In this document: positions 23,582-29,993 of the stretch, piece after piece
Layout of the letters: every line of letters begins with the position of its first letter
Position numbering within the stretch: the first letter of the stretch is position 1
Program-made: the position numbers and the translations under genes
Notes under the pieces: model-generated
What the model was told of the DNA's origin: nothing
The model's input: only the letters and a program-made list of their open reading frames with translations
The model's database searches: none
NCBI GenBank assembly: GCA_002050165.1
Contig: MWSW01000011.1
Coordinates: 1 to 64,000, forward strand
Direction: 5' to 3'
Source of the DNA: Candidatus Tepidiaquacellales bacterium OLB4/UTCHB1
GTDB lineage: Bacteria > Bacteroidota > Ignavibacteria > Tepidaquicellales > Tepidaquicellaceae
DNA: 64,000 nt

Positions 23582-24223
23582 ATGGCAAAAAGAATGTTCA
23601 TCTCAAATAAAGATGAAACAATCAGACTTTTTAAAAATCCCATACTGGAATATTTCTCGCACATCCACCCGGCAACACCGATAGTGGTTTACCTTCCCGC
23701 GTCAATCGCGATGCTATATTTAGCTTATAACAGAATATCAATTCCGGATATACTCTGGTCTTTCGTAGCAGGTGTATTTATTTGGACGATTTTTGAATAC
23801 GCATTTCACAGGTGGGTATTCCACTACGATCCGAAATCTGAAACGGGTAAAAGGATTCACTTTCTGGTACACGGAATTCATCACGATTATCCGCGCGACA
23901 GTACAAGGCTTGTGATGCCACTACTGGTGAGCCTCCCGCTGGCGGTGTTGTTCTTCTTCATTTTTCAATGGGTGTTTGAACCGTACAATTATTCCATTTT
24001 TGCAGGGTTCATTATCGGGTATATATCCTATGACTCGATTCACTACGCGACGCACCACATGAAGATGCAAGGGAAAATTGGAAGGTTCCTGAAAGAATAT
24101 CACCTCAGGCATCACTATAATGATGAACATACAGCGTACGGTGTAAGTAACCCGCTCTGGGATTACGTCTTTAAAACCGTTCCCCCTCACATCGAAAAGG
24201 AAAAGGAAACTCAGGTTTTGTAA
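23582..24223 (+). CDS. Fatty acid hydroxylase / sterol desaturase superfamily membrane enzyme
   Basis: The 213-residue di-iron membrane protein has the histidine clusters of the superfamily: HRWVFH near residues 79-84, HGIHHDYPRD near 98-107, SIHYATHH near 157-164 and LRHHYNDEHTAYG near 177-189. The HHDYPRDSTRLVMP segment resembles fatty acid 2-hydroxylases of the FA2H/Scs7 type. That suggests hydroxylation of lipid acyl chains, for example in sphingolipids or ornithine lipids. No cytochrome b5 domain is fused. Three to four membrane helices surround the motifs. Confidence 0.88.
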   Translation: MAKRMFISNKDETIRLFKNPILEYFSHIHPATPIVVYLPASIAMLYLAYNRISIPDILWSFVAGVFIWTIFEYAFHRWVFHYDPKSETGKRIHFLVHGIHHDYPRDSTRLVMPLLVSLPLAVLFFFIFQWVFEPYNYSIFAGFIIGYISYDSIHYATHHMKMQGKIGRFLKEYHLRHHYNDEHTAYGVSNPLWDYVFKTVPPHIEKEKETQVL

Positions 24224-24249
24224 GCCGGTTTAATCACCGGCTTTTTTTT
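24222..24249 (+). terminator. Rho-independent terminator after the hydroxylase gene
   Basis: The stem AAGCCGGT/ACCGGCTT has a 6-nt loop and is followed by eight T. It closes the last core gene before the accessory defence region. Confidence 0.9.
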
Positions 24250-24295
24250 GTTTTTGTTAATGTACAAACTGTCACTGGCGAACTGATATTGTTTT

Positions 24296-24841
24296 CTACC
24301 AAATGTTATTTGTAGCGTAGCGCTTAAAACTAATCTGTTGTGAAAGTATTGACAAAATCCTTTCATTCTTGTCGTTAGCTTCTACCGTCTTTTCCTCGGG
24401 TTCACCTGATTCGTTTTTTTCTTCTTCAGTAAATGGCAGATGCTTTTTTAAATCTTCGAGATTTGAGTTGTGCGAAAGCGAAGAAAGAAAAGTTTTAATT
24501 TCTGATTCACCTTGAAAAATATCTTCATCTACAAAAGGGTTTGCAATATTCTTTGTTCTGATTTCCGTGAACAAACGATTATTCAAATTCTCAAGTGCAG
24601 TATTAAATTCATTGAATAGTCTTAATCCTGCTGGTCTGAATTTAAAGTCATTTCGGTTTTTCAAATGTCGGCTGCCAATTTCACCATCAAAAACAGCAAA
24701 TTGGTTAAATACACCATTGCCAACATCATCAGGATATTTAAGAGGTAAAGCACCTTCATCAGTTGTAAATTGAAAAGCTTGGCTTGTGGGTCGGCTTGTG
24801 ATATTGGGGCAAAAGCAAATGTGCCATTTGCGTGCTGGCAT
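24296..24841 (-). pseudogene. Fragment of an SMC/AAA-type ATPase gene
   Basis: Residues from about position 28 of this frame (LPLKYPDDVGNGVFNQFAVFD, then HLKNRNDFKFRPAGLRLFNEF) look like an interior part of a large AAA/SMC-like ATPase of the kind found in bacterial defence loci. There is no Walker A, signature or Walker B motif, so it is not a complete enzyme. The first 27 or so residues are encoded by the non-coding filler segment that also separates this piece from the HsdR fragment. I therefore read the gene as truncated at its 5' end and probably not functional. The exact family is uncertain. Confidence 0.55.
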
Positions 24842-25020
24842 AAAATTTCAAAATATTTTGTGCGGAGGGATAAAAAATACAGAAGGGTCGGCAAAGAGTG
24901 TCTGCCTACTCGCTGTCCGTTTGAAATATGGTCTGTATGTTGTCGTCCCCCTGTCAAAACTTGTTTCTCTCTTTTCAGTTTTCACTCGGTAAATGTCTGC
25001 TGTGTCGTGTTGTTTTACGC
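24785..25020 (-). other. Non-coding filler segment between two gene fragments
   Basis: This stretch has no credible coding frame of its own, although short open frames cross it. On the minus strand it begins with GGACGTTGGCAGCAAGCG and contains GACAGGGGGACGACAAC and TTTGCCGACCCTTC. It resembles intergenic filler I associate with cassette-rich and mobile regions of Bacteroidota genomes. It joins the broken HsdR gene on one side to the broken ATPase gene on the other. Confidence 0.4.
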
Positions 25021-25314
25021 TTGCTGCCAACGTCCCGCTTGTTCTTTTCCGTCTAACGGATTTTTGTCTTCCTTTTTGGCTTCCAAAATAACGAGTGGAA
25101 AACCTTTCTCATCAAGCAATAAAAAATCAATAAATCCGTTTTTTGTAGATTCAAAATCTTCGCCGAAAGCGTCAATGTCCCTTTGGGTAAGTTTTACATT
25201 CGGTTCAAGCGAAATATTCGCTTGTCCATTTTCATTATCAAAAAATCGCCAGCCCGCCTGTTCAAGCAGTTTGTTTATTTTTATTCGTGCTTTTGCCTCT
25301 TTGGAATTTGCCAT
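25015..25314 (-). pseudogene. Truncated HsdR N-terminal nuclease domain (type I restriction enzyme)
   Basis: The first 93 or so residues match the N-terminal nuclease domain of type I restriction R subunits. An opening helix precedes a PD-(D/E)xK core with Asp in NGFIDFLLLD and the EAKKEDKNPLDGKEQA motif. The normal sequence continues with several hundred residues of helicase motor, but here the frame hits a stop six residues after KEQAG, exactly where the filler segment starts. An isolated nuclease domain of this kind is unlikely to restrict DNA. No hsdM or hsdS gene is present in the window. Confidence 0.75.
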
Positions 25315-25435
25315 ACTTTTATTTCATTAAGTTATCTAGCGAAACGCCGGGCGCGTTCAACAGTGTTTTTCGAGGTTTGATTCTTTGCGGTGTGCTTTCG
25401 AAAAAATTCGAACTGATTTCGCCCAAAATTCGTAG

Positions 25436-25474
25436 GGCGGGCGGAATTCCCCCCAGACCGCCCTTCCGCCCGCC
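25436..25474. repeat. Perfect 11-bp GC-rich inverted repeat
   Basis: GGCGGGCGGAA at 25436-25446 is the exact reverse complement of TTCCGCCCGCC at 25464-25474, with a 17-nt spacer. There is no T run, so a simple terminator role is not obvious. Confidence 0.75.
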
Positions 25475-25517
25475 AACGGAAGCGACCCTTTCGGATTGGA
25501 CGATTTCAAGTTTTTCG

Positions 25518-25551
25518 TTCCGCTTTTAGCGGAACTCCGAGCTTCGCTCGG
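25518..25551 (-). terminator. Two adjacent hairpins just downstream of the Res gene
   Basis: CCGAGC-TTC-GCTCGG (25537-25551) and TTCCGC-TTTTA-GCGGAA (25518-25534) lie 22 bp and more beyond the stop of the minus-strand Res gene. On that strand the second hairpin is followed by a short CGAAAAAC stretch, not a T run. They may end or stabilise the restriction-modification transcript. Confidence 0.5.
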
Positions 25552-25572
25552 TTTGGCGGCAAATTCTTTTTA

Positions 25573-27786
25573 TTAAATTCCGAATAATTCCCAGTTAGAA
25601 AATTCATCAGGATTAAGTTCAGATCCTTTTCCTTTGTAACACATCCAGCGACCGGAAAAATCTTTTGAATTTGTGTTTGCCACAATTCCGCCGGAAATGT
25701 TTTTGTGTTTCTTTATGTATTCTTGTAAACCATCGCTTTTTTCTCGTGCGTCTTTAATCGTGTTTCCGCTTTTCGTATCAAACAAACCAATTTTTCCGTT
25801 TTTAAACTTCACGATGAAGTCAACATAAAAAGGTTTTTGCTCGTCATTTTCAACATAAGGCACGGCAAAAAATGTCGCATCTCGATCGCCGTTTTTAAAC
25901 CACCATTCAATTTGATCTGATTTTTCGAGAAATTTGATGAACGCTTCTTCGGTTTTCCATTTGTTGTCGTAATAAAACGGCTTCATTGCTGATAATTCGG
26001 TTTTAAACTCAGTGAAGTTTCCACCAAAGTTCAACATTTCAGGCAATTCCCAATCTTCTGATTTTTGTAGTTCTGCTTCTCGTTTCTGAGTTTCGGCAAT
26101 GTATTTTTCTTTAGTGCTATCAATGACATTGATAAAATGCTGGCTATTTTTCGGACTTAACACAATATTGATTATTTCAGCAAAGCGATCTGTATATTCC
26201 ATGCCCAGGCGCATTCTAAAAAAGTAGTAAATTGCTTCTTTTAGTCTGCCGATTGAGCGGTCTTCGGGATAAAACGGAGAAAGATTATTTTTAACAAAAA
26301 AATCATAAAGCTTTTGTAAATCAGCTTCATTTTCGGTGTTGATTTTGGCTTCGCCTTTGATTTCTGCATTTACTAGTTTATCAACTCCTTCTGCTTCATA
26401 ATCTGAAATTAAAGACAGTTCCAGTTTTTGCCCTTTGGTTTCAATTTTCTTTTCAAGATCATATTTTTTAGCCTCATCCAAAAAGATATTGATAAACTTC
26501 GGGCTTAAACGAGTTTTTTCTCTTTGACGTAAACGATAAACTGATTCGAGTTTGATTGGTTTGTAGTTTTCAATTCTTTGGCTGGTGTAAATCGTTACAT
26601 AGTTTCTTGCCACGTCTTCCTTAATTTCAATATCGGCAAGGTTTGTAAACACAAAGCCATGATTCAAGATTTCCTGTTTGTAATGCCCTATATCTGGCTC
26701 GGGCATACGCATAATTCGTCCGACTGTTTGGACCGAAAACGTTAGACTTTTCCAATCTCTAAAAAGCACCAAGACTTGAGCGCGAGGGCAATCCCAGCCA
26801 AGAGCGATTGCTTGTTTGAAAATCAAAACTTCGGTTTCGTGATTGTTCTTTGCGATATTTTCAAGATTTTCTTTTCCTTCTGACAAATAAATCGCCAATC
26901 TTCCGTTTTCCGTCGTCATTCCGTATTTATCTTTCAAAATACGCACAACATCATTTTTAACTTGATCTTCCACTTGCGTTTTGCGATCAGGTAATTGAAT
27001 AAGCAAAAGCGGGTTTATATCAATTCCTGCTTCTTTGTACGCTTTTGCGATTTCTGCTCGCTTTTTTATACCTTCTTCAAGCACCATTGCATCTGTTCCG
27101 TCCGCAAGTGTGGTTTTCAAGCTATCACCCGATAAAACATTTTTGAAATTTGGATTAAGAATGACTGATTTTTTGATCATGCCTTCCAATTTCACATCTT
27201 CCAATGGCACGGAAACAATCTCATCGGGGTTTGCGATAACTGGAGTGGCGGAAACTTCAATCGTCAGCCTTGGGGCAATGTCAGAAATTAAATCTTGAGA
27301 AATTTCACTGGTGGCGTGGTGATGACTCTCGTCAATAATCAAAACGATTTCTCGTCCTTCTTCTTTGGTGTTTTCAACAATTTTGCCGAGATAAAATTCT
27401 TTTTCATTTTCTTTGACGATCGTGTTTTTGTCTTTTTTGTTTATACTTTCCCAGTTCAAAAACAAAATTTCATTTTCGCCAATCTGTTTGTCGGTCAAAT
27501 CTTCAAAGTCGGAACATTCCAAAGCCCTTGTATCCTCATAATACTTTTCTAGTTTTTCCTTGCTTTGAGTGTGCAATTTTCTTGGAGCAGTCCAAATAAA
27601 CGAAAGCGGAGTTTTGATTTCCTTATCATCAATGAGTTGCTTCAAAAATTCCGCCATCATTATGGTTTTACCCGATCCTGTCGGAGCTTTAAAAATAACT
27701 TTCTTCTCTCCGCTTTGTTCAAGCAGTTCCTTGCTTCTTGAGAGAAGTTTTTTTATAGCCGTATTTTGATAGTCTTTTAGCTGCAT
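25573..27786 (-). CDS. Type III restriction enzyme, Res subunit
   Basis: The 737-residue Res subunit combines an SF2 helicase/translocase with a nuclease. Walker A APTGSGKT is at residues 34-41 and the DEAH-like box DESH at 152-155, followed by SATP. Helicase motif VI is represented by QTVGRIMRMPEP. A PD-(D/E)xK nuclease at the C-terminus has Asp656, Asp670 and Lys672 (YVDF and FDTKSG). It cuts DNA when two unmethylated sites are engaged and requires the Mod subunit. It follows mod by 11 bp. The gene looks complete and all key residues are present. Confidence 0.93.
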   Translation of the reverse strand: MQLKDYQNTAIKKLLSRSKELLEQSGEKKVIFKAPTGSGKTIMMAEFLKQLIDDKEIKTPLSFIWTAPRKLHTQSKEKLEKYYEDTRALECSDFEDLTDKQIGENEILFLNWESINKKDKNTIVKENEKEFYLGKIVENTKEEGREIVLIIDESHHHATSEISQDLISDIAPRLTIEVSATPVIANPDEIVSVPLEDVKLEGMIKKSVILNPNFKNVLSGDSLKTTLADGTDAMVLEEGIKKRAEIAKAYKEAGIDINPLLLIQLPDRKTQVEDQVKNDVVRILKDKYGMTTENGRLAIYLSEGKENLENIAKNNHETEVLIFKQAIALGWDCPRAQVLVLFRDWKSLTFSVQTVGRIMRMPEPDIGHYKQEILNHGFVFTNLADIEIKEDVARNYVTIYTSQRIENYKPIKLESVYRLRQREKTRLSPKFINIFLDEAKKYDLEKKIETKGQKLELSLISDYEAEGVDKLVNAEIKGEAKINTENEADLQKLYDFFVKNNLSPFYPEDRSIGRLKEAIYYFFRMRLGMEYTDRFAEIINIVLSPKNSQHFINVIDSTKEKYIAETQKREAELQKSEDWELPEMLNFGGNFTEFKTELSAMKPFYYDNKWKTEEAFIKFLEKSDQIEWWFKNGDRDATFFAVPYVENDEQKPFYVDFIVKFKNGKIGLFDTKSGNTIKDAREKSDGLQEYIKKHKNISGGIVANTNSKDFSGRWMCYKGKGSELNPDEFSNWELFGI

Positions 27787-27797
27787 AGTTTTTCCAA

Positions 27798-29477
27798 TTA
27801 TTTAAATACTCTGCGATAAACTCGGAGTATTGCCTCCGGTATAGGTGATAATTTTACTTTTTTCTTCATATCTTCGAATTCTTCGTCAAAAGTATCATCG
27901 CCAAGCGAGAAAATATAAAGACTGAATTTGCCGTCAATTTTGGCAATTTCTTTTTTAAAATCATCTATTGCTTGATGATCAAAAACAATTCCAGTATATC
28001 GCTTCTTGTTTCTGTAAATTTTATATTGCTTTGTTGATTTTACTTCTTCAAAAGTATCTTCTTTTATGCAAAGCATTTCTGTCGCTTTTTCGGTTAGAGC
28101 AATTTTGTTTTTGTCTGTTGGCTCCGCTGGAACAAAAGAAGTTTTAAAGTATTTTAGATTTCCGCCTAAGCCTTCAATTTTAGCCTTTTGAATATCCGCA
28201 TACCCTGCAATAACTTTCTTAATTCTAGGATAACAAATTTCTTCTGCAATATTTCCTTCGTTGTTTGTGCACAGAATAAACTTTCTCCTGCCTTCGTCTT
28301 TTGAATTTAAATTCAAAACAGCGTGTCCCGTTGTTCCGCTACCAGCAAAAAAGTCTAAGATTATACTATCTTTAGGATGTACTGAGGCTTTTATTGCTTC
28401 TTCAACAGCATACAATGATTTTGGGAATGGAAAATCTTTATTTAAGATATTTTTAACAAGCTCGGTGCCATATTTCTTTGCGTTGTACTTTGGTGAGATC
28501 CAAACAGTTTTATAATTGATTTTATTTTTTGTTCGAATTATTTGGGGCTCTTTTGTCCTAGAATTTATTTTTACACTTAGCTCATCAATAATCTCTTCAA
28601 CCGAGTTTCTGGAAAATAACCATTTTCTTTCAACCCCGTCATTGTCTATTGGGTATATTTCTAAAATTTTACCATTTTGGACAACTCGTGATTTGGGGTG
28701 AAAATTTATAGCGCAAACATCACCAAATCCAACAACTTTATTGTTTTTTACCAGTATAGGATAAAAAGAGTTATTACCAGATTCTCTTAAATAGCTTTTT
28801 GTGTTACCTTTTGCTCCGTTTATAAACGGTCTTACATCTGCGCTATCTTCATCTCTTTCTTCTAGTGCAATACTTTTTTCTGATCCATTATATACAAAAA
28901 ACAAAAATTCATTGTTATTTGAAAAATTTTTCCCTTGTATACCGCTAGGATTGTGAATAACCGTAACGGGTGTGATGTATTTAGACGGAAATAGTTCTTC
29001 TAGAAGTACGCCCAGATGCGATATTTCGTTTTCATCAATTGCACAAATCAAAACGCCATTTTTTTTTAATACATTTTTTGCAATTTTCAATCGATTATTC
29101 ATCATTGAAAGCCATTTGCTATGTCTCCAACGATCATTTATATCAACATAGTCATTATTATACTTCCAATCTTTAGCTCCTGTGTTGTACGGCGGATCAA
29201 TATAGATCACATCAATTTTGCCTTTATGTGTGTAATTCAAAACTGAAAGAGCGTGGTAATTATCGCCTTCAATCAAGATATTGGTCGGCTTGTCGGGATC
29301 GGTGATTATCTCTTTGCTTTTTACTTCTTCCAAAACCGGCAATTCCGTTTTACATTGCTCAACAACATTTTCCGGCTTATCTTCCCAAACAAGCCCATAT
29401 TTTTTGCGTTTACGAAGTTGCTCAATCTCTTTGATTAAGTCTTTTCTGTCCCAATTTGTATAATCTTTTTTTGCCAT
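27798..29477 (-). CDS. Type III DNA methyltransferase, Mod subunit
   Basis: This 559-residue N6-adenine methyltransferase gives site recognition and protection for the type III system. Catalytic motif DPPYNTG is at residues 94-100. The S-adenosylmethionine motif DFFAGSGTTGHAVL comes much later, near residue 370. That motif order is the beta class typical of Mod proteins. The region between the motifs should hold the target-recognition domain. An N-terminal basic coiled stretch (residues 10-30) is also seen. The gene is complete and lies 2 bp after the XRE regulator gene. Confidence 0.94.
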   Translation of the reverse strand: MAKKDYTNWDRKDLIKEIEQLRKRKKYGLVWEDKPENVVEQCKTELPVLEEVKSKEIITDPDKPTNILIEGDNYHALSVLNYTHKGKIDVIYIDPPYNTGAKDWKYNNDYVDINDRWRHSKWLSMMNNRLKIAKNVLKKNGVLICAIDENEISHLGVLLEELFPSKYITPVTVIHNPSGIQGKNFSNNNEFLFFVYNGSEKSIALEERDEDSADVRPFINGAKGNTKSYLRESGNNSFYPILVKNNKVVGFGDVCAINFHPKSRVVQNGKILEIYPIDNDGVERKWLFSRNSVEEIIDELSVKINSRTKEPQIIRTKNKINYKTVWISPKYNAKKYGTELVKNILNKDFPFPKSLYAVEEAIKASVHPKDSIILDFFAGSGTTGHAVLNLNSKDEGRRKFILCTNNEGNIAEEICYPRIKKVIAGYADIQKAKIEGLGGNLKYFKTSFVPAEPTDKNKIALTEKATEMLCIKEDTFEEVKSTKQYKIYRNKKRYTGIVFDHQAIDDFKKEIAKIDGKFSLYIFSLGDDTFDEEFEDMKKKVKLSPIPEAILRVYRRVFK

Positions 29478-29479
29478 AA

Positions 29480-29704
29480 TTAAATCTTTATTAAATCATC
29501 AATGGTAATCCCTAAACCATCCGCAATTTTCGTTATTGTCTGCAAGGAGGGATTTTGAATAACATCACTTTCTATCTTGGCTAAAGTCGTATAGGGAATA
29601 TCCGCCTTTTTAGCTAAAGCGTCTTGCGTAATGTCTTTCTTTTTACGCCATGCTTTGATTTTCTGGCCTATTGTTTTGACTTGATTCATTTTCTTTTCTT
29701 CCAT
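29480..29704 (-). CDS. XRE-type helix-turn-helix regulator
   Basis: The 74-residue protein is almost entirely an HTH_XRE domain: TIGQKIKAWRKKKDITQDALA, then the recognition helix region PYTTLAKIESDVIQNPS and a closing LGITIDDLIKI. It is the first gene of the operon and probably acts as the controller protein that delays restriction until methylation is established. An ATG five residues downstream (MNQVKTIG) is an alternative start. Confidence 0.88.
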   Translation of the reverse strand: MEEKKMNQVKTIGQKIKAWRKKKDITQDALAKKADIPYTTLAKIESDVIQNPSLQTITKIADGLGITIDDLIKI

Positions 29705-29788
29705 AAAATGATAGTATTAATATGATGGCGTATGTATATCATCAGTATTATACTAACAAATATAATAAAAACAATCAAATTAAAAATT

Positions 29789-29886
29789 CGGGAAGCCCGC
29801 TTTTGGCTAGCCCCTTCGGGGCAAAGATAAAAAATTCCAATTTACGCTTAAAATTGGCTGGCGAGCCCTCGCAGAGGGCGAGCCAA
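29789..29886. repeat. Cluster of four hairpins between the R-M operon and tRNA-Ser
   Basis: Four stem-loops follow one another: CGGG-AAG-CCCG (29789-29799), GCCCC-TTC-GGGGC (29810-29822), CCAATTT/AAATTGG (29837-29857) and a larger structure with outer TTGGCT/AGCCAA and inner GCCCTC-GCA-GAGGGC (29854-29886). They lie just 3' of tRNA-Ser(CGA) on its transcribed strand and upstream of the XRE gene. They could process or terminate the tRNA transcript, or mark an island boundary. Confidence 0.6.
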
Positions 29887-29903
29887 CAAAGACATTTCCT
29901 AAC

Positions 29904-29993
29904 TGGCGGAGAGACAGGGATTCGAACCCTGGATACCCTTGCGGATATGCCGGTTTTCGAGACCGGTGCTTTCAACCACTCAGCCATCTCTCC
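29904..29993 (-). tRNA. tRNA-Ser (anticodon CGA)
   Basis: A full cloverleaf is visible on the minus strand. The acceptor stem is GGAGAGA/TCTCTCC, the D arm GCTGAGTGG, the anticodon stem CCGGT/ACCGG with loop CTCGAAA, and there is a long variable arm. The T arm contains GGTTCGAATCC, and the 3' CCA is encoded. The large variable arm and G discriminator fit serine. It reads UCG codons. Its 3' end faces the restriction-modification island. Confidence 0.97.

What the first reader, a model, noticed from the sequence alone, without database searches (positions are those of the whole stretch)
24296..29993. Layered defence island next to tRNA-Ser(CGA): one intact type III R-M system and two broken defence genes
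An apparently complete XRE-Mod-Res operon is followed by a truncated HsdR nuclease domain and a fragment of an SMC/AAA-like ATPase. The core genes on each side (fatty acid hydroxylase with its terminator, and the tRNA-Ser/msrB block) are ordinary. The 3' end of the tRNA faces the island, a common site for island integration. The arrangement suggests repeated insertion and loss of defence systems at one locus.
Basis: partly seen in the sequence, partly recalled or inferred. Interest (0 to 1): 0.55.

Follow-up and report, generated by a model that had tools for sequence, protein, structure and literature searches.

The report
Jumping restriction-modification cassette in tRNA-Ser
A small DNA cassette carrying a complete bacterial anti-virus enzyme system sits at the end of a tRNA gene, with landing-site marks that match a family of site-specific jumping elements found in tiny Patescibacteria, which suggests that defence genes move between distantly related bacteria this way.

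Summary
In detail: XRE-Mod-Res is intact by sequence, and the HsdR and AAA pieces are remnants. The island resolves further. About 4.52 kb (25387-29905) is an integrated cassette with recognisable ends: tRNA-Ser(CGA) '...CTCCGC|CAGTT' on one side and '...CACCGC|AAAG' on the other. Both flanks match attachment arms of a large serine recombinase (LSR) element in a CPR-like bin (P' arm 92% over 64 bp; P arm 77% over 88 bp, stopping at the core). A P-arm matrix built without the window ranks this site first in the window. In 19 of 20 LSR loci from the order of a Staskawiczbacteria genome the LSR abuts a tRNA 3' end; 6 of 10 bounded cargos hold defence-type genes. The window's genome has no such LSR, so the cassette is a non-autonomous form. 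A complete element, 91-92% identical in DNA to copies from that order, sits in tRNA-Asn of another genome of the window's class. The HsdR fragment follows an XRE tail, so an older XRE-led module probably lay here; the AAA fragment's route is unknown. In relative G002 the syntenic locus has no defence genes. Direction of transfer, mobility and enzyme activity are inferred, not shown.

The parts
29904..29993 (-). tRNA-Ser(CGA), target gene; its encoded CCA end runs into the cassette's P' arm
   Evidence: of 7 tRNA-Ser(CGA) genes of relatives printed, 6 read CCGC-A without CCA and 1 (G002) reads CCGCCAATTT
29770..29905 (-). P' attachment arm (attL = tRNA ...CTCCGC|CAGTT...), containing GGCTCGCCCTCTGCGAGGGCTCGCCAGCC
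   Evidence: 29823-29886 is 92% identical to an arm beside the LSR gene of L147, E 3e-21; junctions read; inner limit about 29770 by eye
29480..29704 (-). XRE-type regulator, first gene of the cassette
   Evidence: HTH_3 E 1e-15; PADLOC HTH_VI 2.1e-12, control protein 1.6e-11
27798..29477 (-). Mod, type III DNA methyltransferase (DPPY before FAGSG), 559 aa
   Evidence: Mbo45V (7dsu) E 2.8e-43
28374..28904 (-). variable middle of Mod (probable target recognition region)
   Evidence: unaligned in blastn against each of L067, L068, L072, L077, L078, L099, chosen by eye; L062 and L063 align throughout
25573..27786 (-). Res, type III restriction subunit (Walker A, DESH, C-terminal DFIV...DTK), 737 aa
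   Evidence: motifs read by eye
25387..25517 (-). P attachment arm (attR = ...GTTCGAATTTTTTCGAAAGCACACCGC|AAAG), core CCGC 25387-25390
   Evidence: 73.5-77% identity to L147 arms, alignments stopping at 25385 and 25387; best matrix hit of the window at 25418 minus
25319..25386 (-). probable remnant of an older XRE gene tail (...GVSLDNLMK*)
   Evidence: 25307-25357 is 86% identical to the XRE tail/Mod start junction of L077, E 9e-10; reading by eye
25015..25314 (-). HsdR N-terminal fragment, residues 1-99 of about 849
24296..24841 (-). fragment of a PDC-S06-like AAA ATPase, about residues 161-279 of 866
23582..24223 (+). fatty acid hydroxylase, core flank
   Evidence: matched in 34 of 40 genomes, own included

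Best explanation
The intact XRE-Mod-Res system is the cargo of a 4.5-kb integrated cassette that entered the 3' end of tRNA-Ser(CGA) by attP x attB recombination catalysed by a large serine recombinase of a family frequent in Patescibacteria. The recombinase pairs the cassette's attP core with the tRNA end, leaving P' beside the tRNA and P at the far end; the P' arm supplies the CA of an encoded CCA, so the tRNA gene stays whole. The cassette has no recombinase gene, so it was either mobilised in trans or lost its LSR. It landed next to the remains of an older XRE-HsdR module. Shown: arms, junctions, gene content, family architecture elsewhere, no LSR of the family found in the host genome. 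Inferred: catalysis by that LSR, direction of transfer (Patescibacteria to Ignavibacteria), restriction activity.
For: Both noncoding flanks match the arms of L147, where the same sequences border a methylase module, an LSR gene and the 3' end of a tRNA. The P arm found by a matrix from 19 other arms (neither window nor L147 among them) is the window's top hit (19.2 against 13.1) at this boundary; hits above 17.5 in 1.24 Mb of 96 loci fall only in L147, L149 and L155, all contigs of G041, of which L149 was in the training set. In 19 of 20 LSR loci from the order of a Staskawiczbacteria genome the LSR abuts a tRNA 3' end. tRNA-Ser(CGA) of 6 of 7 relatives reads CCGC-A, fitting the expected empty site. 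A complete element 91-92% identical in DNA to copies from that order sits in tRNA-Asn of G437, same class as the window genome. Both flanks of the window island are syntenic with G002, so two assembly joins would have to be wrong.
Against: No LSR of this family was found in the window genome, so present mobility is not supported. In L147 and the other bounded cargos the cargo has P arms on both sides, whereas in the window the XRE side carries P', so the window form is not a simple subset of the full element. Mod-relative loci that do lie beside an LSR (L068, L069, L081, L083, L099 and others) and the G047 LSR contigs L227-L229 give no P-arm hit above 17.5, so the R-M genes also travel otherwise. 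The shared core is only about 4 bp. The P-arm score alone is not decisive: the highest of 30 shuffled windows reached 17.6, and shuffled loci gave 1 hit above 17.5 in 1.15 Mb of one strand. The best arm match comes from G041, a fragmented bin whose CPR identity is inferred from its LSRs.
Confidence: 0.84

Rival explanations
1. An ordinary chromosomal defence hotspot: R-M genes were gained and lost by homologous or illegitimate recombination near a tRNA, with no dedicated element.
For: Fragments of other systems lie beside it; Mod-Res relatives sit in varied contexts.
Against: Boundaries coincide with LSR attachment arms on both sides and with the tRNA discriminator end.
Confidence: 0.08
2. Assembly or binning artefact: a Patescibacteria cassette joined into an Ignavibacteria contig.
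For: A 3692-bp contig with 3 mismatches to 26174-29865 is binned as Ca. Peregrinibacteria; tRNA ends are partly shared between phyla.
Against: Host flanks are syntenic with G002 on both sides; older remnants sit between cassette and flank; a complete element occurs independently in G437 near the end of a 76-kb contig, of which I read 14.3 kb, genes ordinary by eye.
Confidence: 0.05
3. Integration by a tyrosine integrase or as an integron cassette.
For: L142 (the same contig as L062, Mod 95%) lies beside a XerA/integron-integrase-like gene.
Against: 24191-25575 compared with the whole window gave only the identity match at E 0.01, so no long copy of the tRNA end at the far boundary (repeats under about 15 bp would not show); LSR arms are present instead; the attC-like palindrome of L142 folds only weakly, z -2.4, 4 of 200 shuffles as good.
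Confidence: 0.03

Closest known systems
Type III restriction-modification (EcoP15I, Mbo45V)
   Same: Mod with DPPY then FxGxG and variable middle; Res helicase with C-terminal nuclease-like motif; adjacent genes
   Different: Led by an XRE gene; Res has no phmmer match to a solved structure at E 0.001
Staphylococcal cassette chromosome (SCC/Ccr) elements (recalled)
   Same: Large serine recombinase, defence cargo, recombinase-less forms; NCBIfam XisF and CcrB are sub-cut-off hits of these LSRs
   Different: Target is tRNA 3' ends, not rlmH; inverted P' arms around the LSR; Patescibacteria
tRNA-targeted genomic islands with tyrosine integrases (recalled)
   Same: Insertion at the tRNA 3' end leaving the tRNA whole
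   Different: Serine recombinase arms, about 4-bp core, no long direct repeat found
Type I R-M genomic island in Patescibacteria nzgw456 (PMC12455944; passages seen)
   Same: R-M system on an island of a Patescibacterium
   Different: The words recombinase, integrase and tRNA do not occur in the main text held

Membership tests
Type III R-M system | Mod: beta-class N6/N4 methyltransferase with DPPY and FxGxG | tested here: met
   motifs by eye
Type III R-M system | Res: SF2 helicase plus PD-(D/E)xK nuclease | tested here: met
   Helicase domains by Pfam; nuclease motif DFIV...DTK read by eye, weak sub-cut-off NCBIfam match over 330-692, E 1e-9
Type III R-M system | ATP-dependent cleavage and methylation | not testable with these tools
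   needs expression or kinetic sequencing data
tRNA-targeting LSR element of Patescibacteria (as defined here) | P arm and P' arm meeting a tRNA 3' end at a short shared core | tested here: met
tRNA-targeting LSR element of Patescibacteria (as defined here) | LSR gene beside the tRNA, flanked by inverted P' arms | tested here: not met
   no such ORF in the cassette and no family member found in the genome; hence a non-autonomous derivative, not a full element
SCC element | Ccr recombinase and attB in rlmH | tested here: not met
   target is tRNA-Ser; no LSR of the family found in the genome
Integron cassette | attC sites and IntI | tested here: inconclusive
   none of the five island proteins searched matches an integrase; no dedicated attC search of the window was run
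Type I R-M (HsdR fragment) | HsdR, HsdM, HsdS | tested here: not met
   only residues 1-99 of HsdR

The most novel reading that the evidence does not exclude
Patescibacteria, many thought to live on other bacteria (recalled), keep a system of small LSR elements that insert XRE-led defence cassettes at many tRNA genes, with recombinase-less cassettes moved in trans, and these elements pass to and from other phyla such as the one holding the Ignavibacteria, so that a parasite and its possible hosts draw on a shared pool of defence genes.
Probability: 0.35. Interest if true: 0.8.

Novelty: new variant of a known kind. Interest (0 to 1): 0.6.

Why it matters
It gives a concrete vehicle, with readable ends, for the movement of defence genes between Patescibacteria and another phylum. 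Because the arms can be searched for, cross-phylum transfers and recombinase-less passengers can be counted in any genome set. It also points to serine recombinases with tRNA targets.

Tried and rejected
Long direct att repeats as left by tyrosine integrases: none seen. Other copies of the island in the own genome: none at E 0.001, 40 of 67 first-look candidates scored. Two arm patterns in viral contigs: 0 and 0 exact matches. FA hydroxylase and tRNA as direct neighbours in relatives: not found; 0 of 29 hydroxylase loci with about 1.5 kb or less of flank held a tRNA, and G002 keeps order with three other genes between. Integron origin of the relative L142: its recombinase passes NF040815 (tyrosine recombinase/integron integrase) but not TIGR02249 (integron integrase), and the palindrome is weak. 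A family restricted to Patescibacteria: rejected, since 11 of 247 genomes of the window's phylum (own included, without a hit) have LSR hits at 1e-20, the best 54%, 39% and 36% identical; beside the 39% one (L311) a P-arm hit of 21.5 but no tRNA, beside the 36% one (L312) a tRNA-Asn facing it but no P-arm hit above 14. Matrix hit of 17.2 in L221: an AT-rich site, taken as chance. Ten paper searches listed no paper whose title or abstract start describes LSR elements at tRNA genes in Patescibacteria; I read only passages of PMC12455944, the other listed papers were not opened.
Full report
OBSERVATION. The genes and fragments described are present at the stated coordinates. XRE, Mod and Res form one minus-strand block with gaps of 2 and 11 bases between ORFs. 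Mod carries DPPY before FAGSG and matches type III enzymes; Res carries Walker A, DESH and a C-terminal DFIV...DTK (motifs read by eye). The HsdR piece covers residues 1-99 of an 849-aa relative and the AAA piece about residues 161-279 of an 866-aa relative; no further stretch of 24101-25450 matched either better than E 0.9. They are remnants, not whole genes misread.

HOST. The window genome (2.42 Mb, 19 contigs) is of the same family as G009, whose Mod locus L244 is contained letter for letter in L079, titled 'Ignavibacteria bacterium isolate Bin_45'. So the host is very probably a member of the Ignavibacteria.

LOCUS IN RELATIVES. In G002 the order lipoprotein, M1 peptidase, HU, FA hydroxylase... 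tRNA-Ser(CGA), tRNA-Ser(GGA)... UvrD is kept, with carB, carA and a cytochrome-like gene (named by eye) where the window has the island. Mod has a 50% relative in G009 and weaker ones in four others: 6 of 40 genomes, own included, at E 1e-20. The island is therefore unlikely to be ancestral.

ENDS OF THE CASSETTE. The island searched against three genomes that carry its closest Mod relatives gave short repeated matches of its noncoding flanks in G041 (29 matches in all; 40 of 86 candidates scored). In contig L147 of G041, window 29823-29886 matches at 92% (E 3e-21) and window 25387-25474 at 77% (E 3e-13), the latter stopping where a CCGC core occurs. L147 holds a large serine recombinase (Resolvase, Recombinase and Zn-ribbon domains) whose end abuts the 3' end of a tRNA cut by the contig end (CTCTCCGC|CAGTT), an internal copy of the full site (ACACACCGC|CAGTT), and a far end (ACACACCGC|AAGAC). 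The window shows CTCTCCGC|CAGTT at the tRNA and GCACACCGC|AAAG at the far end. Of seven tRNA-Ser(CGA) genes of relatives printed, six read CCGC-A without an encoded CCA and one, G002, reads CCGCCA; the six fit an empty site CCGC|AAAG. The element thus spans about 25387-29905, 4.52 kb.

TEST OF THE P ARM. A matrix from 19 P arms (14 of the 20 loci, plus L149, L223, L224, L225 and L226; not the window, not L147; loci where I could not read an arm were left out) gives its best score of all positions on both strands of the window at 25418 minus, 19.2 against 13.1 for the next. Thirty mononucleotide shuffles had a mean maximum of 11.4 and a highest of 17.6 on one strand. In 1.24 Mb of 96 loci scores above 17.5 occur only in L147 (two sites, 19.2 each), L149 (in the training set) and L155; shuffled sequence gave one such hit in 1.15 Mb of one strand. 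Against a simple story: the G047 LSR contigs L227-L229 and Mod-relative loci beside LSRs gave none above 17.5.

THE ELEMENT FAMILY. The LSR of L149 has relatives at E 0.001 in 14 of 26 genomes that carry Mod relatives, 13 of the 14 of 1.4 Mb or less, and at E 1e-60 in 41 of 147 genomes of the order of G047, the genome of L069, titled Ca. Staskawiczbacteria. Of 39 Mod-relative loci scanned, 10 hold an LSR hit at 1e-5, some weak. I fetched 20 of the listed LSR places, favouring long contigs. In 19 of 20 a tRNA 3' end faces the LSR and the LSR frame runs 12-189 bases past that end, into or through the tRNA on the opposite strand; in the twentieth no tRNA was found and the contig stops. In 16 of 20 an inverted copy of the arm at the LSR's 3' side lies beyond its 5' side (my count, which showed at most six repeats per locus; L283, L287, L289 and L299 show none). 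Ten cargo intervals with both P arms visible were read (9 of the 20, plus L147). Six hold defence-type genes: L288 type II R-M and a ThsB-like TIR, L292 type I R-M, L294 type II R-M, L295 AbiL, L296 type I methylase and specificity genes with a PDC-S18 protein and an Old/GajA-like ATPase, L147 a type II methylase. Four show none I would call defence: L283 (an XRE gene and one protein without a hit), L284 and L298 (no hits in two proteins each), L280 (eight proteins, three partial PADLOC hits: dCTPase 1.6e-7, PDC-S07 2.4e-15, mad2 3.8e-16). PADLOC saw 29 of the 57 ORFs.

TRANSFER. With the L149 LSR, 40 genomes (own and 39 relatives) gave one weak hit, G033 at E 2e-4. With the L147 LSR, 11 of 247 genomes of the phylum have hits at 1e-20, the own not among them. 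One, G437 (same class), has an element in tRNA-Asn with the same layout, P-arm score 26.0 and inverted arms of 127 bp; its LSR region is 92.5% and 91.2% identical in DNA over 1.8 kb to L262 and L292 from the order of G047, LSR protein 96%. Its LSR match carries one TAG, and the open frame is 493 aa. It lies on a 76-kb contig of which I read 14.3 kb. The window cassette is 99.92% identical to contig L061 (3 mismatches in 3692, two of them within 22 bases of the contig end, inside P'), binned as Ca. Peregrinibacteria, and Mod is 95% identical to L062. L061 holds only island sequence, so its true host is open; its bin G040 has only weak LSR relatives, E 6e-29 and 3e-5.

LAYERS. Just outside the cassette, 25319-25386 reads as the last codons of an XRE gene, and 25307-25357 is 86% identical to the XRE-Mod junction of L077, followed at once by the HsdR start. 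An older XRE-led module therefore probably occupied the same tRNA. L088 shows an XRE tail directly behind tRNA-Met (by eye). The AAA fragment has a relative in an XRE-AAA-Mod-Res gene order, but its route here is unknown. The window's cassette differs from the bounded cargos in having P' rather than P on its XRE side, which fits loss of an LSR from a simple element or a distinct recombinase-less form; I cannot tell which.

JUDGEMENT. What it works like: a type III R-M island delivered by a serine recombinase to a tRNA. Membership: type III R-M by sequence, yes; full LSR element, no, because the LSR is missing; non-autonomous derivative of that family, likely. Named precedents (SCC, tRNA islands) are recalled. 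Ten searches found no print record of this element family, but the library lacks most subscription journals and most listed papers were not opened.

Noticed in passing
L280-L299 (LSR loci from the order of G047): In 19 of 20 loci the recombinase frame runs into or through the antisense strand of the tRNA, so the protein's tail would change on integration.
   Followed up: partly
L310:9725-11554 (G437): Element with LSR in tRNA-Asn of a genome of the window's class, 91-92% DNA identity to copies from the order of G047, with a methyltransferase-like cargo gene.
   Followed up: yes
L142 (G041:C30): The 95% Mod relative with Res lies beside a XerA/integron-integrase-like recombinase and an attC-like palindrome that folds weakly.
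   Followed up: partly
G041: A 0.8-Mb bin with at least 29 matches to the island, many of them different Mod/Res genes on short contigs, several ending in repeats.
   Followed up: partly
L280, L283, L284, L288, L292, L294, L295, L296, L298: Cargo is bounded by inverted P arms and, in all of these but L283, the LSR by inverted P' arms, leaving an inverted attP inside the integrated element; its purpose is unclear.
   Followed up: partly
L077:7700-8010 and L088:7724-7900: Truncated XRE tails sit close behind tRNA genes in front of Mod, as in the window's older layer (by eye).
   Followed up: no
window 28374-28904: Middle of Mod is unaligned to six relatives whose ends align at about 70-83% DNA identity, which points to exchange of the target recognition region.
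   Followed up: no
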